In this document: piece by piece, positions 14,521 to 38,690 of the stretch
How positions within the stretch are numbered: position 1 is the first letter of the stretch
Layout: each line of letters begins with the position of its first letter
From: Rubellimicrobium roseum
Lineage (GTDB): Bacteria > Pseudomonadota > Alphaproteobacteria > Rhodobacterales > Rhodobacteraceae
Reading direction: 5' to 3'
Assembly (NCBI RefSeq): GCF_006152145.1
Contig: NZ_VDFV01000037.1
Coordinates: forward strand, 1-39,384
DNA length: 39,384 nt
Notes under the pieces: generated by a model
The model's input: only the letters and a program-made list of their open reading frames with translations
Database searches by the model: none
Told to the model about the DNA's origin: nothing
Made by a program: the position numbers and the translations under genes

Positions 14521-14553
14521 CGGAATCGAACCCTGCGCCTATGTCACCGTGCG

Positions 14554-15862: not shown

Positions 15863-15912
15863 GTCCTGACATCCCGTCTGCCACGTCCAGTTGGTAGCAT
15901 GAGCCTTTATTG

Positions 15913-15962: not shown

Positions 15963-16048
15963 AGAAACGAATCGGGTCCGGTGCAAAGGCCGGCCACGAT
16001 GCGCGAAGCCGACCCGGAGGAGGGGCGGCACCCAAGGGAGGAAAATCG

Positions 16049-17668: not shown

Positions 17669-17680
17669 GGCCGGCCCACT

Positions 17681-17723
17681 TCGGCGCGGGCGCGCCGAGA
17701 CTCCGCAACCACCGCGCCCGCGC
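17681..17723 (+). other. Intercistronic hairpin after the cassette 1 binding-protein gene
   Basis: GCGCGGGCGCG (17684-17694) and CGCGCCCGCGC (17713-17723) are perfectly complementary over 11 bp; an alternative local stem is TCGGCGC with GCGCCGA (17681-17698). It begins 13 bases past the binding-protein stop. There is no T-run, so it probably protects or partly attenuates the transcript, raising the binding protein over the rest of the operon. Confidence 0.5.
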
Positions 17724-17756
17724 TTCCTCTGGAAACGTGATCAGGACCGCTCGCCC

Positions 17757-20294: not shown

Positions 20295-20328
20295 CGGGGC
20301 CTGGCGTCATGCAACGGGAGATGCAGCC

Positions 20329-22142: not shown

Positions 22143-23134
22143 GCCAAGATCTTCTGCGGCTGACCGATGTCACCATCGAGTTCGGCCCCCCGAAGAAGCC
22201 GATCCGGGTCGTCGAGGGGGTGGGCTTCTCGGTCGCCAAGGGCGAAAGCGTGGGCCTCGTCGGGGAGAGCGGGTCCGGGAAGTCCGTCACCTCGCTGGCG
22301 ATCATGCGGCTGATCGGCGGGCGCGTGGTCCAGGGACGCATCGAGCTCGAAGGGCGCAACCTTCTGGACCTTCCCGCGTCCGCCCTGCCGGAAATCCGCG
22401 GCCGCGACATCGCGATGATCTTCCAAGAGCCCATGTCCTCGCTGAACCCGCTGATGACCATCGGCGACCAGATCGGCGAGGCGCTGCTGCTGCATGGGTG
22501 GCGCGACCGCACCGCCCGGCGCGACCGCACCATCGAGATGCTGCACCTCGTCGGCATCCCGAACGCCGAGGGCCGGCTGGGGGCCTATCCGCACCAGTTC
22601 TCGGGCGGCATGCGGCAGCGCGTCATGATCGCGATGGCCGTGGCCTGCGCGCCCAAGCTCCTGATCGCCGACGAGCCCACGACCGCCCTCGACGTGACCA
22701 TCCAGGCGCAGGTCCTTGACCTGATGAAGAAGGTCCGCCGCGAGCTCGGCATGGCGATCCTGCTGATTTCGCACGACCTGGGCGTCATCGCGGACGTGTG
22801 CGAGCGGGTGATCGTCATGTACGCCGGCCGGGTCGTGGAGGAAGCGGACATCCGCACCATCCTGACGCGCCCGCAGCATCCGTACACCCGGGGGCTCCTC
22901 CGCAGCGTCCCGCGGCGCAACCACGAGGCCGAGCGCCTTTACCAGATCCCAGGGTCCGTGCCGCCCGCCGGATCGGTCCGTCAGGGCTGTCCGTTCCGCG
23001 ACCGCTGCGAGCTTTCCGTGTCCCGCTGTGCCGAGGAGATGCCTCCCATGTTCCGTTTCGGTTCGTCGCAATCGGCCGCCTGCTGGGTCACCGCGGCCGC
23101 CGAAGGCGTCGCCCAGGCGGGAGCCGCGGCATGA
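22139..23134 (+). CDS. ABC transporter ATP-binding protein, DppD-like, cassette 1
   Basis: A 331-residue ATPase. Walker A is GESGSGKS (about 42-49), the Q-loop [11 protein letters not shown], the signature FSGGMRQRV (about 154-162), Walker [13 protein letters not shown] (about 178-188) and the switch His is in LISHDLGVI. The C-terminal oligopeptide-type extension, with Cys-containing GCPFRDRC, is present as in DppD/OppD. It should form a heterodimer with the product of the next gene. Its ATG overlaps the stop of the second permease gene and its stop overlaps the next ATG (both ATGA). Confidence 0.95.
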
Positions 23135-24129
23135 CGGCGCTGATCCGGGCCGAGAACCTCGGCAAGACCTTCGGCGCCACCGGCGGCTGGTTCAGGGGCG
23201 CTTCCGATCAGGTGCGAGCCGTGGACGGCGTCACCTTCGACGTGGAGGCCGGCGAGACCCTGGCTCTCGTGGGCGAGTCCGGCTGCGGCAAGAGCACGCT
23301 GGGGCGCCTGCTCCTGCGGCTGATCGATCCGACGGATGGCACGATCCGGTTCGATGGGCAGGACGTGACCCGGCTGTCCTCGGCCGAGATGCGCATGATG
23401 CGCCAGCGCATGCAGATCATCTTCCAAGACCCCTTCGGCTCTCTCTCGCCCCGGCGCACCATCGGGCAGATCATCGGGGAACCGCTCGAGATCTTCGGGC
23501 TGGCCCGCGGACGGCAGGCCCGCCGTGACCGGGTGGCCCAGCTTCTCGATCAGGTGGGCCTGCCGCCCGCCTACATGGATCGTCTGCCCCGGCAGTTCTC
23601 GGGGGGGCAGCGGCAGCGGGTCGGCATCGCCCGCGCGATCGCCGTGAACCCGTCGTTCATCGTCGCGGACGAGCCCGTCTCGGCGCTGGACGTCTCGATC
23701 CAGGCGCAGATCATCAACCTGATGCAGGACCTGCAACGCGACGCGGGCTTTTCCTACCTGTTCATCGCCCATGACCTGGCCGTCGTGCGCCACATCGCCG
23801 ACCGCGTCGCGGTCATGTACCTGGGACGGATCGTGGAGGTCGGCCCCAAGCGCCAGATCTACGACGCGCCCCAGCACCCCTACACGCAGGCTCTATTGTC
23901 GGCGGCTCCCGAGCCGGAGGTCGACACGGTCTCGCGCCGCATCATCCTGAAGGGCGACGTCCCGAGCCCGTCGAACATCCCGCCCGGATGCTCGTTCCAT
24001 ACCCGGTGCCCCATCGCGCAGGAGATCTGCCGCCGGGACCGGCCGCCCCTCGCGCAGGTCGCTCCCGGCCAGCTGGCCGCCTGCCACTTCGCGCGACCGA
24101 ACCCGATCCCCCTCGGCGACGCGGCCTGA
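23131..24129 (+). CDS. ABC transporter ATP-binding protein, DppF-like, cassette 1
   Basis: A 332-residue ATPase. Walker A is GESGCGKST (about 48-56), the Q-loop [11 protein letters not shown], the signature [10 protein letters not shown], Walker [13 protein letters not shown] and the switch His is in [10 protein letters not shown]. The C-terminal oligopeptide-type domain has [16 protein letters not shown]. Together with the DppD-like protein it completes one importer in this operon. A short 43-base gap with an AAGGAA ribosome-binding site leads to the second glycosidase gene. Confidence 0.95.
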
Positions 24130-24172
24130 GCGCCGCCGACGCAGGCCCGATCTTACCCACAAGGAATTTCCC

Positions 24173-26359
24173 ATGGACCATGCTCCCTGGTATCGCACGA
24201 CGCTGCGCTGGGCCCAGACCAACCTGACCGAGATCGACCCGACCCGGTACGACGGCGCTTTCTGGCGGGAGCACTGGCGTCGCACCCGCATCCAGGGCGT
24301 CATCGCCAACGCGGGCGGCATCGTCGCCTACTACCCGAGCGAGATCCCGTTCCATCATCAGGCCGAAACCCTCGACGGGCGCGACCTTTATGGGGAGATT
24401 GTGGCCGCCGCCCGCGAGGAGAACCTGGCCGTCATCGCGCGGATGGATTCCAACCGGGTCGTCCGGGAGCTCTATGAGGCGCATCCCGACTGGATCTGCG
24501 TCGACGCGGAAGGGCAGCCCTATATGCAGGCCGACAAGTTCGTCACCTGCATCAACTCGCCCTACTACTCCGATCACCTGCCCCAGGTGATGCGCGAGAT
24601 CATCGCGCGTTCCAGCCCGGATGGATTTGCCGACAACTCTTGGGCCGGGCTGCCCCGGACCAAGATCTGCCACTGCCTCAACTGCCGCCAGCGCTTCGCG
24701 GCCGAGGGCCATGACCTCCCCCAACGCGAGGACTGGGACGACGAGGCGTACCGCGCCTGGGTGGCCTGGAACTACCGCAGGCGGACCGAGCTCTGGGACT
24801 TCAACAACGCCGTCACGATGGAGGCGGGCGGGCCGGACTGCCGCTGGATGGGGATGCTCTCGGGCGAGGTCCTCAACAACTGCAACCGGTTCATCGACCT
24901 GAGGGAGATCCTGGCCCGCTCCGAGATCGTGATGCTGGACCACCAGCGGCGGACGCCCGAGGACGGCTTCGAGCAGAACACCGAGGCCGGCAAGCGGCTC
25001 CACGAACTCTTGGGATGGGACAAGCTCATCCCTGAAAGCACGCCGCAGTACCAGCTCGGCTCTCCGGCCTTCCGGCTGTCCTCGATGCCGGCGGCAGAGG
25101 TGCAGCTCTGGACCCAGGCGGCCTTCGCCGGCGGCATCCAGCCCTGGTGGCACCACATCGGCGCCGCGCACGAGGACCGCCGGCAGTACCGGACGGCCGA
25201 GCCGATCTTCCGCTGGCACGAGGCGAACCGGGACATTCTCGTGAACCGGACGCCGCTGGCCCGGATCGGCGTCGTCTGGAGCCAGGCCAACCACGACCTG
25301 CATGGCCGCGACCGCCCGGAGCAGCGCACCCTCGATCCCTATCGCGGGATGGTGCGGGCGCTGTCACGCGCCGGGCTCGACTGGCTGCCGGTCGAAGCGA
25401 AGGACATCGCCCGGGCGAAGGGACGGTTCGACGTCCTCGTCCTGCCCAACCTCGTGGTGATTGACCGGGAGACGGAGGCGGCGCTCAGGGATTACGTCGC
25501 AGCCGGAGGATCGCTGATCGCCACCGGCGAGACCGGCAGGAGGGATGGCCAGGGCCAGTGGCGCCAGATACCCGCCCTGTCCGACCTCTTCGGCCTCGTG
25601 CCCGACGGCGAGGCTCTGGGGGCCGATACCACGCCGGACCCCAGCATCGAGATCCCGTTGCGCCACTCCTACCTGCGCTTGGCCCCCGAGCGGCGCCACG
25701 ACGTCTATGGTCCCCGGGACGAGGAAGCGCCTTCCGAGGTCCTTCCGCGTCATCCCATCCTGGACGGCTTGGACGACACCGACACGCTGCCGTTCGGCGG
25801 CCTTCTCCCTTCCATGCGCGCTGGGCCGGACACCTCGGTCTTGGCCACCTTCATCCCCGAGTTCCCGATCTACCCACCCGAGACGTCATGGATGCGGACG
25901 CGGCGGACGGAGATCCCGGCCATCACCGTTCGCGAAGGTCCAAACGGCTCGCGCCTTGCGTTCATCCTGGCCGACTTGGACCGCTGCTATGCCCGTGAGG
26001 GCGCGTTCGAGCATGCCCAGGTCCTGTCCAACGCCGTACGTTGGGCCCTTCACGGGAGTCCTCCAGTGGAGGTCAGCGCGCCCGGCGGCCTGGTTGCGGC
26101 CACGGCCTATGCTCAGGAGGGGCGCTGGATCGTGCATCTGACGAGCCGCATCGTCACGGCCCCTGTTCCTGGCCGACAGGATCACGTGATCCCCATCGGG
26201 CCCGTCGAGGTCAAGATCGATGCAAGCCGTCTGACCGGCTCCGGCGTGCGACTGCGTGTCTCCCAAGGCCAGCCGTCGCTCGCTGTGGATGGCACGAACC
26301 TGACCATCTCGATCGATCGGGTCGTCGGCCACGAGGTGGTCGTCATGGACGCCCGGTGA
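24173..26359 (+). CDS. Cytoplasmic GHL6/GH42-like glycoside hydrolase with trimerisation-type domain
   Basis: A 728-residue protein without a signal peptide. The first 300 residues look like a TIM barrel of the hypothetical glycosyl hydrolase 6 (GHL6) group: GAFWREHWRRTRIQGVIANAGGIVAYYPS, then REENLAVIARMDSNRV and HPDWICVDAEGQPY. A CxCxxC cluster (Cys166, Cys168, Cys171 in KICHCLNCRQRF) follows the FADNSW segment, as in GH42-related enzymes, where it can bind zinc. Residues about 365-480 resemble the GH42 trimerisation, Rossmann-like domain (RIGVVWSQANHDL, DVLVLPNLVVIDRETEAALRDYVAAGGSLIATGETG). The C-terminus is beta-rich. The substrate is unknown; a beta-galactosidase-like role is only suggested by fold. 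It is the last gene of the cassette 1 operon. Confidence 0.78.
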   Translation: MDHAPWYRTTLRWAQTNLTEIDPTRYDGAFWREHWRRTRIQGVIANAGGIVAYYPSEIPFHHQAETLDGRDLYGEIVAAAREENLAVIARMDSNRVVRELYEAHPDWICVDAEGQPYMQADKFVTCINSPYYSDHLPQVMREIIARSSPDGFADNSWAGLPRTKICHCLNCRQRFAAEGHDLPQREDWDDEAYRAWVAWNYRRRTELWDFNNAVTMEAGGPDCRWMGMLSGEVLNNCNRFIDLREILARSEIVMLDHQRRTPEDGFEQNTEAGKRLHELLGWDKLIPESTPQYQLGSPAFRLSSMPAAEVQLWTQAAFAGGIQPWWHHIGAAHEDRRQYRTAEPIFRWHEANRDILVNRTPLARIGVVWSQANHDLHGRDRPEQRTLDPYRGMVRALSRAGLDWLPVEAKDIARAKGRFDVLVLPNLVVIDRETEAALRDYVAAGGSLIATGETGRRDGQGQWRQIPALSDLFGLVPDGEALGADTTPDPSIEIPLRHSYLRLAPERRHDVYGPRDEEAPSEVLPRHPILDGLDDTDTLPFGGLLPSMRAGPDTSVLATFIPEFPIYPPETSWMRTRRTEIPAITVREGPNGSRLAFILADLDRCYAREGAFEHAQVLSNAVRWALHGSPPVEVSAPGGLVAATAYAQEGRWIVHLTSRIVTAPVPGRQDHVIPIGPVEVKIDASRLTGSGVRLRVSQGQPSLAVDGTNLTISIDRVVGHEVVVMDAR

Positions 26360-27127: not shown

Positions 27128-28003
27128 TCAGCTCCGGTTGTGGCGCAAGGCCTGAGGTGTCACACCGTAGGCACGGACGAAGTGGTCGTAGAACTGGCTG
27201 AGCGAGGGAAAGCCCGCCTGAGCCGCCACCGAGGCCACGGTGGCGTTGCTCTCGAGAAGGAGCGCCCTGGCGCGCAGCAGGCGCATCCGAATGATGAAGC
27301 GCCGCATCGGCATCCGGACCACCTGGGTGAAGAGCGAGAGCGCGTAGGTCTCGTGCAGGCCGGTGACGCGCGCCACGTCGGCGTTGGTCATGGGCTGGGC
27401 CAGGTTCTCCAGGATGAAGCGGAGCATCGTCACCACATGGGCCACGCGCGTGCGCTGGGGATGCTCGGCCCCCTCCGGGTTGCCCATGGGCACGCGCAGC
27501 GTGTCGAGCGGCTGGAGCAGGGAACGGCGCAGAAGGGCGTTTAGCTCCATGTAAAGGATCTCGCGCCGCTCGGGCTGGCCGGAGCGGTAGTCGCGATACC
27601 AGGCCTCCACCTGGCCCGCAGGCAGGAGGTCGGGGTCGAGAATGACCATGCCGCCCGACAGCAGCACCACCTGGAGCCGGGCGATGTGCGGCATGAACAG
27701 GAACACGTCGAGCGGTAGATAGATGTTGGCGAGGCGGAGCGGCTCCTCGCCGGTGGGAGAGAGCCGGACGAGCTGGTGGGGGATGTTGGCCCAGAAGAGA
27801 ACGAGGCGGCCGGGCGGAATCTCGATCTCCTGGTCCTCGACCCGGTAGGTCATCGAGCCGCCCGTCAGCACGTTGCCCTCGACGTGCCCGTGCCAATGGG
27901 GGGTCGGCATCAGGCGCGGCTCGAAGAGGCGCATCCCGAATCGGCCGATTGCGCGGTCCTCGGCGTAAAAGCGGCGTTCGGGCCGGGGCGTGGGGGCGGG
28001 CAT
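27128..28003 (-). CDS. AraC-family regulator of cassette 2 (AgpT-like)
   Basis: A 291-residue AraC/XylS-type regulator. The N-terminal cupin-like sugar-sensing domain includes FEPRLMPTPHWHGHVEGNVLTGG (metal-like His pattern) and IEIPPGRLVLFWANIPHQL. The C-terminal pair of HTH motifs is NADVARVTGLHETYALSLFTQVVRMPMRRFI and ATVASVAAQAGFPSLSQFYDHFVRAYGVTPQALR. The start at 28003 is supported by AAGG nearby and by the usual family opening (TPRPERRFY); in-frame ATGs further upstream (for example 28072) would run through likely promoter DNA. It is divergent from an AgpA-like binding-protein gene, just as AgpT, an AraC-type activator, accompanies the alpha-galactoside genes of Sinorhizobium meliloti. 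Activation by an alpha-galactoside is a reasonable inference. Confidence 0.88.
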   Translation of the reverse strand: MPAPTPRPERRFYAEDRAIGRFGMRLFEPRLMPTPHWHGHVEGNVLTGGSMTYRVEDQEIEIPPGRLVLFWANIPHQLVRLSPTGEEPLRLANIYLPLDVFLFMPHIARLQVVLLSGGMVILDPDLLPAGQVEAWYRDYRSGQPERREILYMELNALLRRSLLQPLDTLRVPMGNPEGAEHPQRTRVAHVVTMLRFILENLAQPMTNADVARVTGLHETYALSLFTQVVRMPMRRFIIRMRLLRARALLLESNATVASVAAQAGFPSLSQFYDHFVRAYGVTPQALRHNRS

Positions 28004-28043: not shown

Positions 28044-28215
28044 TATTGCTCCGAAGCAGGCCCGAGGTCCATCCTTCCCTTATCGCGAAGCCCTGACAAA
28101 GGGACGCGGAGAACGGCCCGGACGGGAGGTGAGGCGCCGGCAAGCGCGCCGGTCCTTGCCATCCGGGAACAGCCAGGCCGGGCCCGCACCGGGTCCGAGG
28201 GGAGGACATAGACCG

Positions 28216-30300
28216 ATGAGACCGCAATCGCGCGCCATGACGGCTGCGCTGCTGATGGGTGTTGCGCCCGTGGCCCTTTGGGCGCAGGTCGTCGAACCCA
28301 CGACGCCGCCCGCGCCGCCCGAGTTCGCCGCGCAGGGCGAGCCCGTCTTCGTCAATCGCGACGAGATCTACACCTACCGCGCCCTGCCCGAATATCATGA
28401 GCCGGAGTTCGTGACGGCCTTCGTCGAGGCGGGCAAGCTGCCCCCCGTCGCCGAGCGCCTGCCGGCCGAGCCGCTGGTCTACGAGGCGGGCAACATGCCC
28501 GACGGGATCGGCGTCTATGGCGACGTGATGCGCCATGTGATCGGCGGCCGCCCCGAAGGTTGGAACTACGTCGGCGGCCAGAGCCAGGGCTGGGGCGGCA
28601 TCGACATCGGCCTTTACGAATGCCTGACCCGGACCGGCCCGCTGTTCCAGGTGAACCCGGAGGACCTGCAGCCGCTGCCGAACCTCGCGCGGTCCTGGGA
28701 ATGGTCCGAGGACGGGATGTCCCTCACGGTCAACCTGATCGAGGGCGCGAAGTGGTCCGACGGCGACCCCTTCGATACCGAGGACATCGAGTTCTACTGG
28801 AACGACGCGGTCGTGGACCCCGAGGTGACGCCGCTCAACGGCGCGAGCCCCGAGACCTTCGGCGTGGGCACGACGCTCGAGGTGCTGGGGCCCTACCAGT
28901 TCCGGTTCAACTTCGCGACGGCCTTCCCGGAGCAGGTGCTTTACGCGATGGCCTATGGGACCTTCTGCCCGGGGCCGAGCCATGTCCTCAAGCCCCAGCA
29001 CCCGGCCCATGGCGGCCAGTCCTATGAGGCGTTCCGCAACGCCTTCCCGCCCGACTACATGAATTTCCCGGTGATGGGGGCCTGGGTGCCGGTGGAGTAC
29101 CGGCCCGACGACATCGTGGTGATGCGGCGCAACCCCTACTACTGGAAGGTGGACTCCGAGGGGAACCAGCTGCCCTACCTCGACGAGATGCACTACCGCC
29201 TGAGCACCTGGGCGGACCGCGACGTGCAGGCGGTGGCGGGGACGGGCGACTTCTCGAACCTCGAGCAGGCCGAGAACTTCGTCGAGTCGCTGCGGCGCTC
29301 GGCCGATCCCGAGGCGCCCGCGCGGCTGGAGTTCGGGCCGCGTATCATCGGCTACTCGCTTTATCCGAACCTTTCGGGCAACGGCTGGGGCGCGCCCGAC
29401 GCGCGCGCCCAGGCCATCCGCGATCTGAACCGGAACGAGCACTTCCGCATGGGCGTGACCCAGGCCATCGACCGGCAGCGGCTGGGCGAAAGCCTCGTGA
29501 AGGGGCCCTTCATCGCGCAGTACGCGGGCGGCCTCTATCCAGGGACGGCCTACTATGACGAGGCGTCGACGGTCTTCTACCCCTACTCCCTCGAGAGCGC
29601 GAAGGCGCATTTCGAGGCGGCGGGCCTGACCGACACCGACGGGAACGGCTTCCTGAACCACCCGGCCGAGGTGCTGGGCGGCGCCGACGTGCAGATCACC
29701 CTGCTCGTGAACGGCGACTACGAGACCGACAAGAACCTTGCGTCGGGCGTGGTGGCCATGCTCGAGGAGGCCGGCATCCAGGTCGCGTTGAACCAGCTTT
29801 CGGGCAACGACCGCGACGCCACGCGCGACGCGGGGACCTGGGACTGGCAGGTGTTCCGCAACCCGACCGAGATCATCACGGTCGTGCAGAACACCACCCA
29901 GCTCGCGCCGACGGGGCCCACGACCTCGTGGAACCACCGCGCGAACGAGGCGGGCGAGCTCGACCTTCTGCCGTGGGAGCAGGAGATGGTGGACGTCGTG
30001 AACCGCTTCATCGCGAGCCGCGATCCCGCCGAGCGGACCGAGCTGATGAAGCAGTACCAGCGGCTCTACACCGAGAACCTTTATGGCGTCGGGCTGGTGA
30101 ACTACCCGGGCGCGCTGGTCGTCAACAAGCGCTTCGCCAACATCCCGCCCGGGGCGCCGATCTTCCAGTTCAACTGGGCCGAGGACAACATCATGCGCGA
30201 GCGGGTCTTCGTCCCCGAGGACCGGCAGCAGGACCACGAACTGCACCCCGACACGCTGCCCGGCGCGCCCGGCAGCGCGGGGCCGGCGACCGCCTCGTGA
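28216..30300 (+). CDS. Large ABC transporter substrate-binding protein, AgpA-like, cassette 2
   Basis: A 694-residue exported solute-binding protein. A Sec-type signal peptide (MRPQSRAMTAALLMGVAPVALWAQ) fixes the start, with GGGGAGGA upstream. It is longer than ordinary 500-550-residue members; the size and layout match the AgpA type that binds alpha-galactosides such as melibiose and raffinose. Family landmarks are LPNLARSWEWSEDGMSLTVNLIEGAKWSDGDPF (near residues 155-190), MRRNPYYWKVD (near 305), FRMGVTQAIDR (near 412) and VEAGLTDTDGNGF-like repeats (AAGLTDTDGNGFLN). The gene opens the operon and is followed by a stable hairpin. Substrate assignment rests on the AraC and MelA-like neighbours, not on identified binding residues. 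Confidence 0.92.
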   Translation: MRPQSRAMTAALLMGVAPVALWAQVVEPTTPPAPPEFAAQGEPVFVNRDEIYTYRALPEYHEPEFVTAFVEAGKLPPVAERLPAEPLVYEAGNMPDGIGVYGDVMRHVIGGRPEGWNYVGGQSQGWGGIDIGLYECLTRTGPLFQVNPEDLQPLPNLARSWEWSEDGMSLTVNLIEGAKWSDGDPFDTEDIEFYWNDAVVDPEVTPLNGASPETFGVGTTLEVLGPYQFRFNFATAFPEQVLYAMAYGTFCPGPSHVLKPQHPAHGGQSYEAFRNAFPPDYMNFPVMGAWVPVEYRPDDIVVMRRNPYYWKVDSEGNQLPYLDEMHYRLSTWADRDVQAVAGTGDFSNLEQAENFVESLRRSADPEAPARLEFGPRIIGYSLYPNLSGNGWGAPDARAQAIRDLNRNEHFRMGVTQAIDRQRLGESLVKGPFIAQYAGGLYPGTAYYDEASTVFYPYSLESAKAHFEAAGLTDTDGNGFLNHPAEVLGGADVQITLLVNGDYETDKNLASGVVAMLEEAGIQVALNQLSGNDRDATRDAGTWDWQVFRNPTEIITVVQNTTQLAPTGPTTSWNHRANEAGELDLLPWEQEMVDVVNRFIASRDPAERTELMKQYQRLYTENLYGVGLVNYPGALVVNKRFANIPPGAPIFQFNWAEDNIMRERVFVPEDRQQDHELHPDTLPGAPGSAGPATAS

Positions 30301-30389: not shown

Positions 30390-31418
30390 ATGCTCCGATT
30401 CCTTTCCTTCCGCCTGCTCCAGGCCATCCCCGTCCTCTTCGTCATGAGCGTGATCACCTTCGCGATCATCCAGGCGCCGCCGGGTGACTTCGGCGACTTC
30501 ATCAAGTCCAACATGATCTCGCAGGGGGGCGCCTCGGTGGCCGCCGCCGAGGCCGCCGCCGAGGAGTACCGCGAGCGGCACGGCCTCAACGACCCGCTGG
30601 CCCTCCAGTACGTCCGCTGGATCACCGGGATCGTCACCCGAGGCGACTTCGGCTTCTCCTACTTCTACAACAAGCCCGTGGCGGACGTGGTGGCCGAGAG
30701 GCTGCCGCGCACGATCATGCTGGCGCTGGTCTGCCACTTCCTCGCGAGCCTCCTGGGCATCGGCTTCGGCATCCTGGCCGCGACGCGGCAGTATTCCTGG
30801 GTGGACACGGCCCTGTCGTTCCTGGCCTTCCTGGGCATGACGATCCCGCGCTTCCTGCTCGCGCTCATCATCCTCTACGTGCTGGCCTTCCGGCTGAACG
30901 TGCAGGAGCTGGGCAGCTTCTATTCGAGCCGCTACGGCGGGCAGCCCTACTGGCTCGGGCCCTTCGACTTCAACTGGGCCAAGCTTTGGAACCTGATCCA
31001 GCACGTCTGGCCGGTGGTCTTCATCGCGACCCTGGGGGGGCTGGCCTACAACATGCGGGTGATGCGGGCGAACCTGCTCGACACGCTGAACGCGCAATAC
31101 GTGGAAACGGCCCGCGCCAAGGGCCTGAGCGAAGGGCGCGTCATCATGCGCCACGCCGTCCCGAACGCGCTCCACCCCCTCGTGGCCTACCAGGGCGTCG
31201 TGCTGCCCTACATGCTGACCGGCGAGATCGAGGTGGCCATCGTCTTCTCCCTCGCCACCGTGGGGCCAGCCATCGTGGGCTCCATGGGCATCGGGGACGT
31301 GTACGTCACGGCGACGCTGCTCCTCGTGCTGGGGGCGACGCTCATCATCGGCAACATCATCGCGGACCTGGCGCTCGCGCTGCTCGATCCGCGCATCCGA
31401 GTGGGAGCCACGGCATGA
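30390..31418 (+). CDS. ABC transporter permease, DppB-like, cassette 2
   Basis: A 342-residue inner-membrane permease. TM1 is LLQAIPVLFVMSVITFAIIQAPPGDF. A periplasmic loop with the LNDPLALQYVRWI segment follows, then four or five further hydrophobic segments. The EAA loop is NAQYVETARAKGLSEGRVIMRHAVPNALHPLV near residues 235-266, and the C-terminus LLDPRIRVG is typical. It differs from the cassette 1 permease by a longer region between TM1 and TM2 (SQGGASVAAAEAAAEEYRER), common in the AgpB-like subgroup. Its stop overlaps the next start (ATGA). Confidence 0.95.
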   Translation: MLRFLSFRLLQAIPVLFVMSVITFAIIQAPPGDFGDFIKSNMISQGGASVAAAEAAAEEYRERHGLNDPLALQYVRWITGIVTRGDFGFSYFYNKPVADVVAERLPRTIMLALVCHFLASLLGIGFGILAATRQYSWVDTALSFLAFLGMTIPRFLLALIILYVLAFRLNVQELGSFYSSRYGGQPYWLGPFDFNWAKLWNLIQHVWPVVFIATLGGLAYNMRVMRANLLDTLNAQYVETARAKGLSEGRVIMRHAVPNALHPLVAYQGVVLPYMLTGEIEVAIVFSLATVGPAIVGSMGIGDVYVTATLLLVLGATLIIGNIIADLALALLDPRIRVGATA

Positions 31419-32677
31419 CCGACGCTACAGGTTCCAGCCTGCCGCCGCGCCGCGCCGGCGCCGCCGACCCCACGGCCCCGCGCGACCCCCGCGCCACGCT
31501 GCTGCCCGCCGCCGGACCCGGCACGGCCGCCGTGGAGGCGCCGGCCGGCGACCTCGGGCCGGAGGTCCTGGACAGCCGCGCCTCGACCGTCTCGACCCGC
31601 AGCCAGAGCTATGGCGCCCTGGTCTGGCGCCGGCTCCGGAGGTCCGTGCCGGGGATGCTGGGGCTCGTCCTCGTGACGCTCCTCATCCTCGTGGCGATCT
31701 TTGCCGACTTCGTGAGCCCGGTGGACCCGAAGGCGCGCAACGTGTCCTTCGCCCCGCCGGACAAGGTCTCGTGGTACGTCCCGGGCGACGGGCCCGAGGC
31801 GGGCTGGCGGTTCCTGCCGGTCGTCTTCCCCGTCGTGGAGACGGACGAGTTCGATCCCGTCACCTTCCAGCCCATCGTGGGGCCGGATTTCGAGAACCCG
31901 CGGCCCATCGTGCTCTTCGCGCCGGGCTGGGAGTACAGCTTCCTGGGCATCCGCATGAGCCGGCACCTCTTCGGGGTCGCGGACGGCTCGCCCTTCCATC
32001 TGCTAGGCACCGACACGCTGGGGCGCGACATCTTCTCGCGCGGGGTGGTGGGGAGCCGGATCTCGCTGACGCTGGCCCTGGTCTCGATCGCGCTCATCAC
32101 CATCATCGGCACGCTGGCGGGGATCGCCTCGGGCTATATCGGCGGGCGCTTCGACGCGTGGTTTCAACGGTTCGTGGAGATCATCCTCGCCTTCCCGCAA
32201 CTGCCTCTCTACCTCACGCTCGCCACGCTGATCCCGGTCACGGCGCCGTCGGGGGTCTTCCTGACCTTCGTCGTCGTGGTGATCGTGGCGCTGGGCTGGG
32301 CGCAACTCTCGCGCGAGGTGCGGTCCAAGACCATGGCGCTGCGACAGGTGGACTATGTCCGGGCGGCGCTGGCGGTGGGGGCCTCGGACGGGCGGATCAT
32401 CACCCGGCACATCCTGCCCAACGTGATGAGCCACATCATCGTCTCGATCACGCTGGGGATCCCCACCATCGTGCTCCTCGAATCCTTCCTGGGCTTCCTG
32501 GGCTTCGCGGTGAAGCCGCCGCTGATCTCCTGGGGGCTCATGCTCCAGGACGCGGGGACCTTTTCCGTGATCGGTTCCTATCCCTGGATCCTGAGCCCCG
32601 TGGGCTTCGTGCTCCTCACCGTCTTCGCCTTCAACGCCCTGGGCGACGGCCTTCGCGATGCCATCGACCCCTACTGA
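31415..32677 (+). CDS. ABC transporter permease, DppC-like with long N-terminus and periplasmic insert, cassette 2
   Basis: A 420-residue permease, about 120 residues longer than the cassette 1 counterpart. An Ala/Pro-rich cytoplasmic N-terminus (about 1-70) leads to TM1 (VPGMLGLVLVTLLILVAIFADFVSP). A periplasmic insert of about 100 residues (PDKVSWYVPGDG to GIRMSRHLFG) precedes the conserved LLGTDTLGRDIFSRGVVGSR. The EAA loop is around QVDYVRAALAVGASDGRIITRHILPNV, and the end is NALGDGLRDAIDPY. The insert is normal for the AgpC-like, large-binding-protein subgroup and may dock the large binding protein. The next gene follows after 10 bases. Confidence 0.94.
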   Translation: MTDATGSSLPPRRAGAADPTAPRDPRATLLPAAGPGTAAVEAPAGDLGPEVLDSRASTVSTRSQSYGALVWRRLRRSVPGMLGLVLVTLLILVAIFADFVSPVDPKARNVSFAPPDKVSWYVPGDGPEAGWRFLPVVFPVVETDEFDPVTFQPIVGPDFENPRPIVLFAPGWEYSFLGIRMSRHLFGVADGSPFHLLGTDTLGRDIFSRGVVGSRISLTLALVSIALITIIGTLAGIASGYIGGRFDAWFQRFVEIILAFPQLPLYLTLATLIPVTAPSGVFLTFVVVVIVALGWAQLSREVRSKTMALRQVDYVRAALAVGASDGRIITRHILPNVMSHIIVSITLGIPTIVLLESFLGFLGFAVKPPLISWGLMLQDAGTFSVIGSYPWILSPVGFVLLTVFAFNALGDGLRDAIDPY

Positions 32678-32687
32678 GGCCGGACCC

Positions 32688-34316
32688 ATGACCGAGATGA
32701 CCCCTATCCAAGGCCCCCTGATCGACGCCCGCAACGTCGCCGTCACCTTCAAGGTCGAGGGCGGCACCGTGGAGGCCGTGCGCGACGTGTCCTTCGCCGT
32801 CTGGCCCGGCAAGACCACCGCGCTGGTGGGCGAATCCGGGTCGGGCAAGTCGGTGACGGCGCGGGCCGTCATGCGGCTCCTCAGCAAGCGGGCGACCGTG
32901 TCCGACCGGACGCGCATCCTGTATGCCGGAAAGGACATGGCGCATCTGTCGGATCGCGAGATGCGGCGGCTGCGGGGCAACCGCATCTCCATGATCTTCC
33001 AAGAGCCGATGTCCTCGCTGAACCCGGTCTACACGATCGGGGCGCAGATCAGCGAAGGGCTGATCCTGCACCAGAGGATGACCCGCAGGGCCGCCTGGGC
33101 GCGGGCCATCGAGCTTTTGGAAGAAGTGCAGATCCCCGATCCGGCGGCGCGGGTGAACCAGTATCCGCACCAGCTTTCGGGCGGGCAGCGGCAGCGCGTG
33201 ATGATCGCAATGGCGCTGGCCAACCGGCCCGATGTGCTGATCGCCGATGAGCCCACGACGGCGCTCGACGTCACGGTGCAGGCGCAGATCCTACACCTGA
33301 TCGACGACCTGAAGACGAAGTACGGGATGGGGGTCATCCTCATCACCCACGACCTGACGGTGGTGCGGCAGTTTGCGGACCATGTGCATGTGATGCAGCA
33401 CGGCGAGATCCGCGAATCCGGTCCGACCGAGCAGATCTTCACCGCGCCCGAGCACCCCTACACCCGGCGCCTCCTAGCATCGGAGCCCCGAGGGCAGGCC
33501 GACCCCGCGCAGGTCCACCCCGAGACGGTGCTGAAGGGCGAGAGGGTGCGGGTCGCCTTCATGCTGCGCCGCGGGGGCTTCTTCAAGGGCAGCTATCATC
33601 CGCTCGTCGCGGTGGACGACCTGTCGCTGGACCTGAAGCGGGGCGAGACGCTGGGCCTTGTGGGCGAGTCGGGGAGCGGCAAGACCACCTTCGGGCAGGC
33701 CCTGATCCGGCTCATCAGGAACGACGGCGGGCGGATCACCTTCGCAGGCGACCGGATCGAGGACAAGGACCGCAAGGCGATGCGGCCTTACCGGTCCCGG
33801 ATGCAGATCGTGTTCCAGGACCCCTTCGCGTCCATGAACCCGCGCCTGTCGGTTCGCCAGATCATTGAGGAAGGGTTGGTGGTGAACGGCATCGGCCGGA
33901 CCTCGCGGGAGCGGTTCGAACGGGTGCAGCAGGCGCTCCGCGACGCCGGGCTGCCCGACACCATCAGCCACCGCTTTCCGCACGAGTTCTCGGGCGGGCA
34001 GCGGCAGCGGATCGCCATCGCGCGGGCCATCGCGCTCGAGCCCGAGTTCATCCTGCTCGACGAGCCCACCTCGGCGCTCGACCTGTCGGTGCAGGCGCAG
34101 ATCATCGAGCTCCTGCGCAAGCTCCAGCGCGAGAAGGGGCTGAGCTACCTGTTCATCTCGCACGATCTCAAGGTCGTGCGGGCGCTGTGCCACCGCGTGA
34201 TGGTGATGCAGCACGGCAAGATCGTCGAGGAGGGGCCTGTGGACCAGGTCCTGGTCGACCCCAAGACCGACTACACCAAGCGGCTCGTGCGCGCGGCGTT
34301 CGAGATCGCGGCCTGA
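32688..34316 (+). CDS. Fused double ATPase of the Opp/Dpp type (DppD-DppF fusion), cassette 2
   Basis: A 542-residue protein with two complete nucleotide-binding domains. Domain 1 has Walker A GESGSGKS (about 48), signature LSGGQRQRV (about 163) and Walker [12 protein letters not shown] (about 184). Domain 2 has Walker A GESGSGKTT (about 325), signature FSGGQRQRI (about 434) and Walker B LLDEPTSALD (about 455). Switch histidines are in LITHDLTVV and FISHDLKVV. This one chain replaces the two separate ATPases of cassette 1; such fusions occur in GsiA/YejF-type transporters. The oligopeptide-type C-terminal extensions are reduced. The start at 32688 has GAGG upstream; an ATG at 32697 is an alternative. 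Confidence 0.94.
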   Translation: MTEMTPIQGPLIDARNVAVTFKVEGGTVEAVRDVSFAVWPGKTTALVGESGSGKSVTARAVMRLLSKRATVSDRTRILYAGKDMAHLSDREMRRLRGNRISMIFQEPMSSLNPVYTIGAQISEGLILHQRMTRRAAWARAIELLEEVQIPDPAARVNQYPHQLSGGQRQRVMIAMALANRPDVLIADEPTTALDVTVQAQILHLIDDLKTKYGMGVILITHDLTVVRQFADHVHVMQHGEIRESGPTEQIFTAPEHPYTRRLLASEPRGQADPAQVHPETVLKGERVRVAFMLRRGGFFKGSYHPLVAVDDLSLDLKRGETLGLVGESGSGKTTFGQALIRLIRNDGGRITFAGDRIEDKDRKAMRPYRSRMQIVFQDPFASMNPRLSVRQIIEEGLVVNGIGRTSRERFERVQQALRDAGLPDTISHRFPHEFSGGQRQRIAIARAIALEPEFILLDEPTSALDLSVQAQIIELLRKLQREKGLSYLFISHDLKVVRALCHRVMVMQHGKIVEEGPVDQVLVDPKTDYTKRLVRAAFEIAA

Positions 34317-34330
34317 TTGCGAGGATTTCC

Positions 34331-35695
34331 ATGACCGTCATCACCTTCATCGGGGCGGGTAGCACCGTCTTCACCAAGAACATCGCGGGCGACCTCCTGC
34401 ATCGAGAGGCGCTGAAGGGCGCCACGATCCGCCTGATGGACATCAACCCCAGGCGGCTGGAGGAGTCCGAGGTCGTCGTGGGCAAGCTCGCGCAGACCCT
34501 GGGCGGGCGGGCCAGGGTCGAGACCTACACCGACCAGCGCCGTGCGCTGGAGGGCGCGGACTTCGTGGTCGTCAGCTTCCAGATCGGCGGCTACGAGCCC
34601 GCGACGGTGACGGACTTCGAGGTGCCCAAGCGGTTCGGCCTGCGCCAGACCATAGCCGACACGCTGGGCGTGGGCGGGATCATGCGGGGGCTGCGGACGG
34701 TGCCGCACCTGTGGTCGATCTGCGCGGACATGATGGAAGTCTGCCCCCGGGCCATCATGCTCCAGTACGTGAACCCCATGGCGATCAACACCTGGGCGAT
34801 CGGGGCGAAGTTCCCGGAGATCCGGCAGGTGGGCCTGTGCCATTCGGTGCAGGGCACGGCTGAGGAGCTGGCGCGCGACCTCGACATCCCGATCGAGGAG
34901 ATCCGCTACCGGGCGGGCGGCATCAACCACATGTCGTTCTACCTGAACTTCGAGCACCGCCAGCCCGACGGGTCCTACGTGGACCTTTATCCGGCGCTGC
35001 GGCAGGGCTACCGGGACGGCCGCTTCCCCAAGCCCTCGTCGTGGAACCCGCGCTGCCCCAACAAGGTGCGCTATGAGATGCTGATGCGGCTGGGCTACTT
35101 CGTGACCGAGTCGTCGGAGCACTTCGCCGAGTACACGCCCTGGTTCATCAAGCGCGACCGCCCCGACCTGATCGAGAAGTTCGGCATCCCGCTGGACGAG
35201 TACCCCAAGCGCTGCGTGGAGCAGATCGCGCGGTGGGACAAGCAAGCGCAGGAGTATCGCGACGCCGAGAAGATCGTGGTGAAGCCGTCGCACGAATATG
35301 CCTCGGCCATCGTAAACTCGGTGGTCACGGGCGAGCCGTCGGTGATCTACGGCAACATCCGCAATCGCGGCTTCATCCCGCAACTGCCCGACGGCTGCGC
35401 GGTCGAGGTGCCGATTCTCGTGGACGACAACGGCCTTCAGCCGACGACGGTGCAGGACATTCCGCCCCAGCTCATCGCGCTCCAGCGCACCAACATCAAC
35501 GTGCAGGAGCTGACGGTCGCCGCGCTCATGACCGAGAACCGCGAGCACATCTATCACGCCGCGATGCTCGACCCGCACACCGGGGCGGAGCTGGACCTCG
35601 AGCAGATCTGGTCGCTGGTGGACGACCTGCTGGACGCGCACGGCGAGTTCACGCCGGAATGGGCCCGGCCCGAACCGCGCCGGAAGGCCTCGTGA
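34331..35695 (+). CDS. melA: GH4 alpha-galactosidase-like glycosidase (MelA type)
   Basis: A 454-residue family GH4 enzyme. GH4 glycosidases need NAD+ and a divalent metal (usually Mn2+) and work by oxidising C3 of the sugar, followed by elimination. Visible are the Rossmann loop FIGAGSTVFTKNI (about 4-17), DINPRRL, the NPMAINTWAI strand, the metal-binding motif CHSV (Cys170, His171) and GINHMSFY with His200. The CHSV variant is the one I associate with alpha-galactosidases such as MelA. No signal peptide: cytoplasmic. GAGGA precedes the ATG. With the AgpA-like binding protein and the AraC-type regulator it completes an agp/mel-like alpha-galactoside module. Its stop overlaps the start of the flavoprotein gene (TGATG). 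Confidence 0.9.
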   Translation: MTVITFIGAGSTVFTKNIAGDLLHREALKGATIRLMDINPRRLEESEVVVGKLAQTLGGRARVETYTDQRRALEGADFVVVSFQIGGYEPATVTDFEVPKRFGLRQTIADTLGVGGIMRGLRTVPHLWSICADMMEVCPRAIMLQYVNPMAINTWAIGAKFPEIRQVGLCHSVQGTAEELARDLDIPIEEIRYRAGGINHMSFYLNFEHRQPDGSYVDLYPALRQGYRDGRFPKPSSWNPRCPNKVRYEMLMRLGYFVTESSEHFAEYTPWFIKRDRPDLIEKFGIPLDEYPKRCVEQIARWDKQAQEYRDAEKIVVKPSHEYASAIVNSVVTGEPSVIYGNIRNRGFIPQLPDGCAVEVPILVDDNGLQPTTVQDIPPQLIALQRTNINVQELTVAALMTENREHIYHAAMLDPHTGAELDLEQIWSLVDDLLDAHGEFTPEWARPEPRRKAS

Positions 35696-37200
35696 TGGCA
35701 GCGGCGGGCTGGCCGGAACGGATCGTCGTCGTGGGCGGCGGCACGGCGGGCTGGCTCGCCGCGATGATGCTGTCGGACGTGGCGGGTAAGAAGTCCCCCG
35801 GCACCTCCGTGACCGTCATCGAGTCCTCCAAGATCGGGGTCATCGGGGTGGGGGAGGGCTCGACGGCCGTCTTCCGCCAGATGCTGCGGCGCTTCGGGCT
35901 CGACGAGGAGGAGTTCCTTCGGGAGACCGGGGCCACGATCAAGTTCGGCATCCGGCACCGGGACTGGCGGAGGCTCGGGCACCATTACGACGGGCCGATC
36001 GACGACCCCCATCTCGTGGCGCCGGGCATTCCTCTCGACTGCTATGCGGTCGCGGCAGGCAAGCCGGTGCAGGAGGCGCACCTCTTCCAGCACCTGATCT
36101 GGAAGAGGCGCGGGCCCTTCGCGGAGGTGGACGGGAGGCGGGTGCCGGCGGGGCCGTTCCATCACGCCTTCCACTTCGACCAGGCGCTGGTGGGCCAGTG
36201 GCTGCGGAAGAAGGCCCGTGGCATCCGGCATATCGACGATCAGGTGACGGGGGTCGAAAAGGGCGGCGAGGGGATCGTCGCCCTGCATCTGGAAGGCGGG
36301 CTGCGCATCGAGGGCGACCTGTTCATCGATGCCTCGGGCTTCCGGCGCAGGCTTGTGTCCGAGATGCCGTTCGACTGGATCAGCTTCTCGGACATGCTCC
36401 CCAACAATCGGGCGCTGCCCTTCTGGCTGGACCTGAAGGACGGGGAGGAGATCGACCCCGTGACCGGGGCTTGGGCGCAGGGCCACGGCTGGATGTGGCA
36501 GATTCCCACCCAGGGGCGCTTCGGCTGCGGCTATGTCTACTGCGACGCCTACATCACCCCCGAGGAAGCGCAGGCCGAGATCGAGCGGACGCTGGGGCAC
36601 CCCATCGAGCCACGCGGCGACATCCGCATCAACCCCGGGCGGCAGCGGGATGTCTGGGTCGGCAACGTCGTGGCCGTGGGCCTCGCGTCCTCGTTCCTGG
36701 AGCCATTGGAGGCGACCTCGATCCACGGAACCATCGGGCAGCTCATCTGCCTGACGGAATGGCTCGGTCAGCCGGGAGGCAAGGCACGCTACAACGCCAC
36801 CGCCGCGCGGCAGGTGGACGACTTCCGCGATTTCGTGCGGCTCCATTATGTGAGCGAGCGGCGCGACACGGCCTACTGGCGGGACGTGACCGCCTCCCAT
36901 CCGCCCGTGGTGACGGAGCGGCTGGAGAAGTGGTCGCGCAAGTTCCCGTCGCGCGAGGACTTCGAGCCGTTCCCGCTCGGCCTCGCCCATGTGCAGGAGC
37001 AACTTTACGTGCCCGTGCTCAACGGGCTCGGCCTCCTGAACCAGGACCTCGCGCGCGCCGAGATGGCCCGCGACCCGAAGCTGCGCCAGAAGGCGCGCGA
37101 AACCCATGCGAGCCTTGTCGCGGAGTATTTCCGAGCGGCCGAGAGATGCCTGCCGCACCGCGCCTGGCTCGAGTCCCTTCACAAGGAATTGGCGGCATGA
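35695..37200 (+). CDS. Flavin-dependent tryptophan-halogenase-like protein
   Basis: A 501-residue FAD protein of the tryptophan-halogenase superfamily. The FAD motif GGGTAGW is at 14-20. GVGEGST (about 52-58) precedes Lys83 in ATIKFGIRHRDW, which matches the catalytic lysine (Lys79 of PrnA). The halogenase hallmark WxWxIP is intact (Trp266 and Trp268 in GWMWQIP), as is FLEPLEATSIH with Glu336/Glu339, near the glutamate partner of the lysine. The key residues of a true halogenase are therefore present. No flavin reductase lies in the cassette. The start overlaps the MelA-like stop (TGATG) and the stop overlaps the second GH4 start (ATGA), so translation is coupled on both sides. Relatives occur in glycan-use loci of Caulobacterales and sphingomonads with unknown roles. 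The substrate is unknown; a glycoside aglycone or sugar is possible. Confidence 0.88.
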   Translation: MAAAGWPERIVVVGGGTAGWLAAMMLSDVAGKKSPGTSVTVIESSKIGVIGVGEGSTAVFRQMLRRFGLDEEEFLRETGATIKFGIRHRDWRRLGHHYDGPIDDPHLVAPGIPLDCYAVAAGKPVQEAHLFQHLIWKRRGPFAEVDGRRVPAGPFHHAFHFDQALVGQWLRKKARGIRHIDDQVTGVEKGGEGIVALHLEGGLRIEGDLFIDASGFRRRLVSEMPFDWISFSDMLPNNRALPFWLDLKDGEEIDPVTGAWAQGHGWMWQIPTQGRFGCGYVYCDAYITPEEAQAEIERTLGHPIEPRGDIRINPGRQRDVWVGNVVAVGLASSFLEPLEATSIHGTIGQLICLTEWLGQPGGKARYNATAARQVDDFRDFVRLHYVSERRDTAYWRDVTASHPPVVTERLEKWSRKFPSREDFEPFPLGLAHVQEQLYVPVLNGLGLLNQDLARAEMARDPKLRQKARETHASLVAEYFRAAERCLPHRAWLESLHKELAA

Positions 37201-38690
37201 CCTTCAAGATCTGCATCATCGGCGCGGGCAGCGTCGGCTTCACGAAGAAGCTCGTCTCGGACCTGCTCAAGGTGCCCGAGTTCGAGGACGTGGAGTTCGC
37301 TCTGACGGACATCAACGCGCACAACCTCGACATGATCGCGCAGATCATCCGGCGCATCGTCGAGGTGAACGGGCTTCCAGCGAAGGTCACCGCCACCACC
37401 GACCGTCGCGCGGCGCTGGAGGGCGCGCGCTATGTGATGAACGTGGTGCGGATCGGGGGGCTGGAAGCCTTCGCCGACGACATCCGCATCCCGCTCAAGT
37501 ACGGCGTGGACCAGTGCGTGGGCGACACGATCTGCGCGGGCGGCATCCTCTATGGCCAGCGCGGCATCCCGGCGATGATGGAGTTCTGCCGCGATATCCG
37601 CGAGGTGGCGGAGACGGACGCGCTGCTCCTCAACTACGCCAACCCCATGGCGATGATGACCTGGGCGGCTATCGACCATGGCAAGGTGCGGACCGTAGGC
37701 CTGTGCCACGGCGTGCAGAACGGCCACAGGCAGATCGCGCGGGCGCTGCGCGTGCCCATGGAGGAGCTGGACATCGTCTGCTCCGGCATCAACCACCAGA
37801 CCTGGTACGTCGACCTGCGCCACAAGGGACGGAGGATCGGCAAGGACGAGATGATCGCCGCCTTCGAGCGGCATCCGGTCTTCTCCGAGCAGGAGAAGGT
37901 GCGGATCGATGTGCTCAAGCGCTTCGGCTATTATTCGACCGAGTCGAACGGGCACCTGTCCGAATACCTGCCCTGGTACCGCAAGCGGCCCGAGGAGATC
38001 ACGCGGTGGATCTCCATGGACGACTGGATCCATGGCGAGACGGGCGGGTATTTCCGCTACACGACCGAGAACCGCAACTGGTTCGAGACGGATTTCCCGG
38101 TGTTTCTTGAAGAGGCGGGCAAGCCGCTGTCGGACTACGAGCGCACCGACGAGCACGCGTCGCACATCCTCGAGGCGCTGGAGACGGGGCGCGTCTATCG
38201 CGGGCACTTCAACGTCAAGAACGGCGGCACGATCACCAACCTGCCCGCTGACTGCATCATCGAATCGCCCGGGTTCGTGGACCGCTTCGGGATCAACATG
38301 GTCGAGGGGATCACGCTGCCGCTGGCCTGCGCCGCCACCTGCAACGTGTCGGTCAGCGTCCAGCGGATGAGCGTGGAGGCGGCGATGACCGGCGACCTCG
38401 ACCTGCTCAAGCAGGCCGTGCTGCATGACCCGCTCGTGGGGGCGATCCTGAACCCCGAGGAGGTCTGGCAGATGGTGGACGAGATGGTGGTGGCGCAGGA
38501 GAAGTGGCTGCCCCAGTACGTCCACGCCATCGCCGAAGCGCGCGAGCGCCTGAAGAACCCGAAGGTTCGAACCCGCGAGTGGGCTGGTGCCGCGCGGCTC
38601 GATGTACGGTCGGTGGACGAGCTGCGGGATGCCAAGAACAAGAAGGCGGCCGGCGAGGGTCATGGGCTCGGTACCAAGGTTATGGGCTGA
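37197..38690 (+). CDS. Second GH4-family glycosidase with a CHGV active-site motif
   Basis: A 497-residue GH4 enzyme. The Rossmann loop is IIGAGSVGFTKKL (about 6-18), followed by DINAHNL, NYANPMAMMTWAA, CHGV with Cys170/His171, and SGINHQTWYVDL with His200. The key residues have exactly the same numbers as in the first GH4 enzyme, but CHSV is replaced by CHGV. A CHG-type motif is, as I recall, typical of GH4 alpha-glucosidases and alpha-glucuronidases rather than alpha-galactosidases, so a second sugar linkage is likely. The protein has about 40 extra residues at the C-terminus (TREWAGAARLDVRSV to the end). It should be NAD+ and Mn2+ dependent and cytoplasmic. It is the last gene of the cassette; no clear terminator follows. 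Confidence 0.88.
   Translation: MTFKICIIGAGSVGFTKKLVSDLLKVPEFEDVEFALTDINAHNLDMIAQIIRRIVEVNGLPAKVTATTDRRAALEGARYVMNVVRIGGLEAFADDIRIPLKYGVDQCVGDTICAGGILYGQRGIPAMMEFCRDIREVAETDALLLNYANPMAMMTWAAIDHGKVRTVGLCHGVQNGHRQIARALRVPMEELDIVCSGINHQTWYVDLRHKGRRIGKDEMIAAFERHPVFSEQEKVRIDVLKRFGYYSTESNGHLSEYLPWYRKRPEEITRWISMDDWIHGETGGYFRYTTENRNWFETDFPVFLEEAGKPLSDYERTDEHASHILEALETGRVYRGHFNVKNGGTITNLPADCIIESPGFVDRFGINMVEGITLPLACAATCNVSVSVQRMSVEAAMTGDLDLLKQAVLHDPLVGAILNPEEVWQMVDEMVVAQEKWLPQYVHAIAEARERLKNPKVRTREWAGAARLDVRSVDELRDAKNKKAAGEGHGLGTKVMG

What the first reader, a model, noticed from the sequence alone, without database searches (positions are those of the whole stretch)
34331..38690. Flavin halogenase-like enzyme translationally coupled between two NAD-dependent GH4 glycosidases
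Seen: the order GH4 (CHSV) - FAD protein with intact WxWxIP and Lys83 - GH4 (CHGV), joined by TGATG and ATGA overlaps. Known: GH4 enzymes pass through a 3-keto sugar using NAD+ and metal, and halogenase-fold enzymes use FADH2, chloride or bromide and O2 on aromatic rings. Inference: the three act on one compound, perhaps an aromatic glycoside whose aglycone is modified, or a sugar oxidised by the flavoprotein. I know of no described pathway with this arrangement. No flavin reductase is in the cassette, which a true halogenase would need from elsewhere.
Basis: partly seen in the sequence, partly recalled or inferred. Interest (0 to 1): 0.8.

Follow-up and report, generated by a model that had tools for sequence, protein, structure and literature searches.

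The report
Halogenase-like enzyme in galactoside-uptake operon
A Rubellimicrobium-like bacterium carries a halogen-attaching type of enzyme in an operon that looks made to import and cut alpha-galactose sugars, and relatives keep it with one kind of sugar importer, but what it halogenates, if anything, is unknown.

Summary
GH4 (34331-35695), a Trp_halogenase-family protein (HAL, 35695-37200) and a second GH4 (37197-38690) overlap as TGATG and ATGA. They end a longer operon: divergent AraC, SBP5, OppB, OppC, fused OppDF. The compared proteins match the Sinorhizobium meliloti agp/mel alpha-galactoside locus, which lacks HAL; so the GH4 pair is known and HAL is the addition. The order is not chance: of 79 loci found by HAL, 68 have GH4a, 67 part of the Opp importer, 22 the directly adjacent triple. 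In 69 family genomes with GH4a, HAL is in the locus in 13 of 15 with the Opp importer and 0 of 54 without it; so HAL tracks the importer more than the glycosidase. HAL is one clade; Lys83, Glu339 and WxWxIP are kept in 85 of 85, but the His/Phe that stack on tryptophan are Gly/Ile, with clade-fixed His88, Asp103 and Asp284. A 1.6-Mb genome (locus 31% GC) has OppDF and HAL overlapping. Likely a flavin halogenase acting on a polar, non-tryptophan compound tied to this importer; substrate unknown. The aromatic-glycoside idea is neither shown nor excluded.

The parts
27143..27991 (-). AraC-type regulator, divergent from the operon (agpT-like position); ends approximate (extent of the tblastn match)
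   Evidence: tblastn 55% to the AraC gene of relatives; Pfam HTH_18, AraC_binding
28153..30300 (+). SBP family 5 solute-binding protein (AgpA-like); start codon uncertain, ORF opens at 28129
   Evidence: Pfam SBP_bac_5; 65% to the S. meliloti protein
30390..31418 (+). OppB-type permease (AgpB-like)
   Evidence: Pfam BPD_transp_1
31415..32677 (+). OppC-type permease (AgpC-like); start uncertain
   Evidence: Pfam OppC_N and BPD_transp_1; 67% to the OppC of relatives
32658..34316 (+). fused OppDF ATPase (AgpD-like)
   Evidence: Pfam ABC_tran, two stretches; 72% to the S. meliloti protein
34331..35695 (+). GH4a, NAD-type alpha-galactosidase family, CHSV
   Evidence: PF02056 and PF11975; NCBIfam PRK15076 656 bits, cut-off 486; 78% to the second GH4 of the S. 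meliloti agp locus
35695..37200 (+). HAL, flavin-dependent halogenase-family protein, 501 aa
35941..35943 (+). codon of Lys83, the conserved catalytic lysine position
   Evidence: 85 of 85 in the HAL clade
36490..36507 (+). codons of WMWQIP (WxWxIP motif, residues 266-271)
   Evidence: 85 of 85 at W, W, I and P
36709..36711 (+). codon of Glu339, conserved active-site glutamate position (role recalled)
   Evidence: 85 of 85
37197..38690 (+). GH4b, NAD-type alpha-galactosidase family, CHGV; orthologue of the GH4 in the melA position
   Evidence: PF02056 and PF11975; NCBIfam PRK15076 580 bits, cut-off 486; 75% to the GH4 in the S. meliloti melA position

Best explanation
Shown: the three genes are the 3' end of an operon orthologous to the agp/mel alpha-galactoside uptake and hydrolysis locus, and HAL belongs to one clade of flavin-dependent-halogenase-fold enzymes kept with the Opp-type (SBP5) importer of that locus. 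Inferred: HAL is a cytosolic two-component flavin halogenase. FADH2 from a reductase encoded elsewhere reacts with O2 to the flavin hydroperoxide, this oxidises chloride or bromide to HOX, and HOX is delivered by Lys83/Glu339 to a polar substrate that is not tryptophan. The most likely substrate is a small electron-rich compound that enters through this importer, alone or carrying galactose, so that HAL and the galactosidases process what one importer brings in. HAL is not needed for plain melibiose/raffinose use, since S. meliloti does without it in this locus.
For: Locus identity: orthology to the S. meliloti agp locus and PMC4254191 passages (melA promoter beside agpT; melA and downstream genes required for alpha-galactosides); genes that look like GH36 or the galactonate pathway beside HAL in some loci. 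Linkage to the importer: 13 of 15 against 0 of 54; the other way round, all 14 of 14 family-sample genomes with HAL of this clade have the Opp-type GH4a locus (in G165 the two lie on different contigs); neither this importer nor HAL found in the scattered GH4a rows L150, L151, L152, L156; OppDF followed directly by HAL in L143 and L219. Clade and constraint: 98 support, quick tree; dN/dS 0.12 and 0.22. Catalysis: Lys83, Glu339, WxWxIP 85 of 85 and in L219. Fold. Altered substrate side: Gly100, Ile102, His88, Asp103, Asp284.
Against: Seven Rhizobiaceae-type agp loci carry the same importer without HAL (L112, L113, L214-L217, L220), so the importer does not require it. G094 (L196) also lacks HAL; G165 has it on another contig (L144). 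L079 and L102 carry HAL with no agp genes in the stretch held, and so does L097, where the match lacks the first 84 residues and lies in an oversized ORF. No substrate is known; no activity is shown; Lys/Glu conservation does not prove halogenation. Melibiose and raffinose offer no obvious halogen acceptor. The CUT1 loci form nearly one clade, so the Fisher p (2.7e-12) overstates the independent evidence. An open pocket is not established: loop 1 is short, but the loop-2 stretch is longer in this clade (median 34) than in the outside homologues (28-31).
Confidence: 0.45

Rival explanations
1. HAL modifies a peptide or protein, for example an importer subunit or an imported peptide, as has been proposed for BrvH and Xcc4156 by analogy with MibH.
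For: Open-pocket halogenases are suggested to take peptides (PMC7336383, passages); HAL has a short loop 1; HAL follows the importer; distant homologues sit beside TonB receptors.
Against: No AgpA residue is fixed (95% or more) in 57 HAL+ proteins and absent from 7 HAL- proteins (weak test, as a target residue need not be absent from HAL- proteins). AgpA has a Sec-like signal by eye, so it would leave the cytosol unfolded.
Confidence: 0.2
2. HAL is a halogenase-fold oxygenase that oxidises a sugar or a 3-keto/enol intermediate of the GH4 reaction, without halide.
For: Frequent company of sugar genes; polar clade-fixed residues; the monooxygenase QhpG has a halogenase-like structure (PMC7876137, passages).
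Against: The halogenase lysine, glutamate and WxWxIP are all kept; HAL is missing from the 44 CUT1-type GH4a loci; the QhpG model scores 34 bits against a cut-off of 240.
Confidence: 0.12
3. HAL makes hypohalous acid or a halogenated signal to inactivate a toxin, antibiotic or competitor signal encountered through the importer.
For: Presence tracks the importer and HAL is dispensable in Rhizobiaceae-type loci.
Against: Nothing positive points to it; the neighbours were not searched systematically for defence or resistance genes.
Confidence: 0.1
4. One reading: an aromatic galactoside is imported, halogenated on its aglycone and deglycosylated.
For: Compatible with the operon and with halogenase chemistry; a special case of the best explanation. 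In one S. meliloti strain phenylacetate-degradation genes lie next to the HAL-less agp locus, which may be chance.
Against: Both GH4s are orthologues of melibiose/raffinose-locus enzymes; the residues that stack on the aromatic ring in tryptophan halogenases are replaced.
Confidence: 0.1
5. Chance insertion of an unrelated gene.
For: HAL is absent from the Rhizobiaceae-type agp loci examined.
Against: Conserved order, clade and selection; kept in a 1.6-Mb genome.
Confidence: 0.03

Closest known systems
Sinorhizobium meliloti agpT / melA / agpABCD alpha-galactoside locus
   Same: AraC divergent regulator, SBP5 binding protein, permease(s), fused ATPase, two GH4s; 65-78% identity for the four proteins compared
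   Different: No halogenase there; the GH4b orthologue is first in the operon there, last here
Flavin-dependent halogenases BrvH and Xcc4156 (native substrates unknown, PMC7336383)
   Different: 29-30% identity; HAL clade has Gly/Ile at the His/Phe places and its own fixed His88, Asp103, Asp284; it lies in the operon of an ABC sugar importer
Tryptophan halogenases SttH, AbeH, Th-Hal, PyrH, PrnA, RebH
   Different: Trp-stacking His/Phe replaced, loop 1 about 22 residues shorter than in SttH and Th-Hal; a sugar-uptake neighbourhood
QhpG flavoprotein monooxygenase (acts on a protein Trp)
   Same: Halogenase-like fold (PMC7876137, passages), weak NCBIfam hit
   Different: 34 bits against a cut-off of 240

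Membership tests
Flavin-dependent halogenase (Trp_halogenase, PF04820) | Pfam match over the curated cut-off | tested here: met
   343 bits, cut-off 21
Flavin-dependent halogenase (Trp_halogenase, PF04820) | GxGxxG, WxWxIP, catalytic Lys and Glu | tested here: met
   Lys83, Glu339, W266, W268, I270, P271 in 85 of 85; Gly14 and Gly16 in 83 of 85, the other 2 gaps
Flavin-dependent halogenase (Trp_halogenase, PF04820) | halogenase fold over the whole chain | tested here: met
Flavin-dependent halogenase (Trp_halogenase, PF04820) | halogenation of a substrate with FADH2, O2 and halide | not testable with these tools
   needs enzyme assay
Tryptophan halogenase in the strict sense | His and Phe around Pro (HPF) that stack on the indole (role recalled) | tested here: not met
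   Gly100 in 85 of 85; Ile102 in 84 and Leu in 1 of 85, against HPF in SttH
agp/mel alpha-galactoside locus | AraC regulator, SBP5, OppB, OppC, fused OppDF and two GH4 orthologues | tested here: met
agp/mel alpha-galactoside locus | supports growth on melibiose or raffinose | not testable with these tools
   needs growth tests
GH4 glycosidase | both GH4 Pfam domains and a CHxV motif | tested here: met
GH4 glycosidase | NAD+ and metal dependent activity | not testable with these tools
   needs assay
QhpG monooxygenase | NCBIfam equivalog cut-off | tested here: not met
   34.1 bits against 240

The most novel reading that the evidence does not exclude
A catabolic, importer-linked class of flavin halogenases exists: halogenation chemistry used in sugar uptake rather than in natural-product biosynthesis, on a substrate class not described before.
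Probability: 0.35. Interest if true: 0.8.

Novelty: new variant of a known kind. Interest (0 to 1): 0.6.

Why it matters
The native substrates of some flavin halogenases found from genome data are unknown (stated for BrvH and three Xanthomonas enzymes in PMC7336383, passages). This clade gives a precise lead: one importer, one operon, a fixed set of residues, named hosts (for example Rubellimicrobium, Devosia, Kaistia and Limimaricola strains) and a natural control (Sinorhizobium and Rhizobium with the same importer and no halogenase in the locus). That makes the open question of what such enzymes are for directly testable.

Tried and rejected
Protein-target test: looked for AgpA residues fixed in 57 HAL+ and absent in 7 HAL- proteins; none (65 of 93 loci gave a usable protein, one of them, L195, set aside as ambiguous). 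It is a weak test. Chance insertion rejected. Neighbours of HAL outside the named genes were not annotated systematically, so defence, resistance or aromatic-degradation genes there are not excluded.

Literature: nine of ten searches used. No paper in the held library had both 'tryptophan halogenase' and 'alpha-galactosidase', or all of halogenase, N-acetylglucosamine, TonB-dependent and regulon. The rows shown (20 of 85; 2 of 2; 12 of 6,946; 4 of 4; 15 of 154; 20 of 76) named no halogenase in such a locus by title and start of abstract; the rest of those lists was not seen. Papers seen as passages only: PMC4254191, PMC7876137, PMC7336383, PMC8269204, PMC4207669. PMC12247023 gave no passage for the stacking residues, so their role is recalled.

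The substrate tunnel could not be measured, as no model coordinates were in the box. Families not listed are not excluded by it.

Limits and rows dropped. One search kept the best 80 of 81 relatives (79 loci) and may leave out genomes very near the window; 119 loci, 116 gave a stop-free HAL, 110 of these longer than 430 aa were aligned with the window's: 85 core (six pairs are identical copies, so 79 different) and 26 others. Trees are the quick ones, with midpoint roots; the careful GH4a tree did not finish. In one search one listed Opp+HAL row was too short and dropped, and the L085 row is the wrong GH4 (a GH4b cross-hit) on a very long branch. Of the 10 other genomes with GH4a in the class sample I looked at three loci: G055, G453 and G601.

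Full report
1. The observation. GH4a 34331-35695, HAL 35695-37200, GH4b 37197-38690. The cassette is the end of a longer run of genes on the same strand: SBP5 (28153-30300), OppB (30390-31418), OppC (about 31415-32677), fused OppDF (32658-34316), with a divergent AraC gene at about 27143-27991. That they form one transcript is inferred. The window is contig C82 of a 4.85-Mb genome; the nearest named relative found is Rubellimicrobium rubrum (HAL 92%).

2. What the GH4s are. Both pass the NCBIfam alpha-galactosidase subfamily cut-off. Against S. meliloti plasmid pMl9 (L113), GH4b is 75% identical to the GH4 beside the AraC gene, GH4a 78% to the GH4 at the other end, the binding protein 65% and the ATPase 72%. 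[quoted passage not shown] HAL was not found at E 1e-5 in any of eight agp stretches without it: L112 and L113 (S. meliloti), L114 (Qingshengfaniella), L214 (Rhizobium leguminosarum), L215 (Martelella), L216 (Ensifer), L217 (R. lusitanum), L220 (R. etli), all of which have GH4a, GH4b, SBP5 and OppDF. In the plasmid collection 274 records have GH4a at 60% identity or more, but one record, Sulfitobacter mediterraneus, has HAL at 60% or more, and it has the full GH4a-HAL-GH4b order. So the GH4 pair is known and HAL is the extra part.

3. Conservation of the arrangement. A HAL search of genome contigs gave 79 loci (capped at the best 80 relatives), chosen by HAL, many cut by contig ends. By tblastn 68 of 79 have GH4a, 67 of 79 part of the Opp importer, 52 of 79 GH4b at 60% or more, 46 of 79 all three, 36 of 79 in the order a-HAL-b on one strand, 22 of 79 with less than 200 bases between HAL and GH4b; 5 of 79 show none of the partners (L079, L089, L097, L100, L102; L089 and L100 are short contigs). 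Other layouts: HAL convergent to GH4a in Kaistia, Bosea and Bauldia, HAL after GH4b in Devosia. HAL against R. rubrum has dN/dS 0.12, its neighbours 0.08-0.12; against L034 it is 0.22, its neighbours 0.15, so HAL evolves somewhat faster but under constraint.

4. HAL follows the importer. In a family sample of 295 genomes, 69 including the window have GH4a at E <= 1e-100. I fetched the loci of the other 68 (G287 gave two pieces) and typed the importer by tblastn. Opp/SBP5 type: 13 of 15 have HAL in the locus or, for G287, on a second contig piece; the two others are G165, whose HAL is on another contig (L144), and G094, which has none. CUT1 type: 0 of 44. Neither type seen: 0 of 10; some of these stretches are cut by contig ends. 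Read the other way, 14 genomes of the sample have HAL of this clade (43 of 295 have any HAL-family match at 1e-30), and 14 of 14 have the Opp-type GH4a locus. Fisher p 2.7e-12, not corrected for kinship. In a quick GH4a tree nearly all CUT1 loci form one clade, so they count as about one event; but L150, L151, L152 and L156, where neither this importer nor HAL is found, are scattered among Opp+HAL rows, which suggests several more joint losses (L152 has another Opp set, 44% to OppDF, some 5 kb off). Against this, HAL was lost or never gained with the importer kept in the Rhizobiaceae-type loci and G094. Most CUT1 loci carry the same downstream galactonate-pathway-like genes as some HAL loci, so importer and HAL look like a swapped pair around GH4a. 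Names of pathway genes are by sequence look, not by family search.

5. A distant check. In the class sample HAL at E <= 1e-100 is in 2 of 385 genomes, the window's and G453. G453 is a 1.6-Mb genome; its locus is 31% GC. There the order is GH4b-SBP5-OppB-OppC-OppDF-HAL, HAL and OppDF sharing a base, with GH4a nearby. All 22 positions checked in HAL are identical to the window's. In the phylum sample only the window and G242 of 398 passed 1e-85, so the clade is sparse outside the family.

7. Mechanism. Best reading: a two-component flavin halogenase, served by a reductase encoded elsewhere (three PF01613 proteins in the genome), acting on a polar compound that comes in through the AgpABCD-type importer. 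Steps shown: gene order, fold (predicted), catalytic residues, linkage to the importer. Steps inferred: HOX chemistry, substrate, order of action. The protein-target reading is the main rival.

8. Known or new. Flavin halogenases and agp loci are known; their union was not found in the searches made, within their limits. Homologues also sit beside TonB receptors, with sugar genes near, in four of the six regions of distant plasmid hits that I read (the other two, lie by nif genes), so a wider link of halogenases with sugar uptake is possible, but six picked regions are no survey. I rate it a new variant of a known kind, interest 0.6.

Noticed in passing
window 10608-26359: A second carbohydrate block: GH43 (10608-12635), LacI regulator (14762-15862, -), another SBP5 (16049-17668), an 845-aa protein weakly like alpha-galacturonidase (17757-20294, 41 bits against cut-off 1300), Opp genes and a GHL6/GH42M protein (24173-26359).
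   Followed up: no
L071:2484-3512, L085, L087, L089, L146:11718-12596, L219:1840-2667 and 14032-14763: PhyH-type (Fe/2OG dioxygenase) genes near HAL in several distant lineages (Pfam run on four of them); a second O2-dependent enzyme might act on the same compound.
   Followed up: partly
L102:9842-11638: Mesorhizobium sp. L-8-3 has a divergent HAL between genes that look like nrdR and ribD (by eye), with no agp genes in the stretch held.
   Followed up: no
L117:7977-9497, L122:8028-9455: A very divergent halogenase-family gene in the nif region of two Sinorhizobium plasmids, with Asp for the second Gly of GxGxxG and Asp at the Glu339 place.
   Followed up: no
L118-L121: Halogenase-family genes beside TonB receptors with sugar genes near, on Sphingobium, Asticcacaulis, Hirschia and Sphingomonas plasmids.
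   Followed up: partly
L037, L043, L053, L054, L103, L104: A further gene, taken by eye as a GH36 alpha-galactosidase, lies between OppDF and GH4a.
   Followed up: no
L123-L142: Halogenase-family genes at about 31-36% to HAL in Rhodobacteraceae, in the outputs seen mostly not beside sugar loci (output partly cut).
   Followed up: no
L113:12420-21329: In S. meliloti ml66 phenylacetate-degradation genes (paa) follow the HAL-less agp locus.
   Followed up: no
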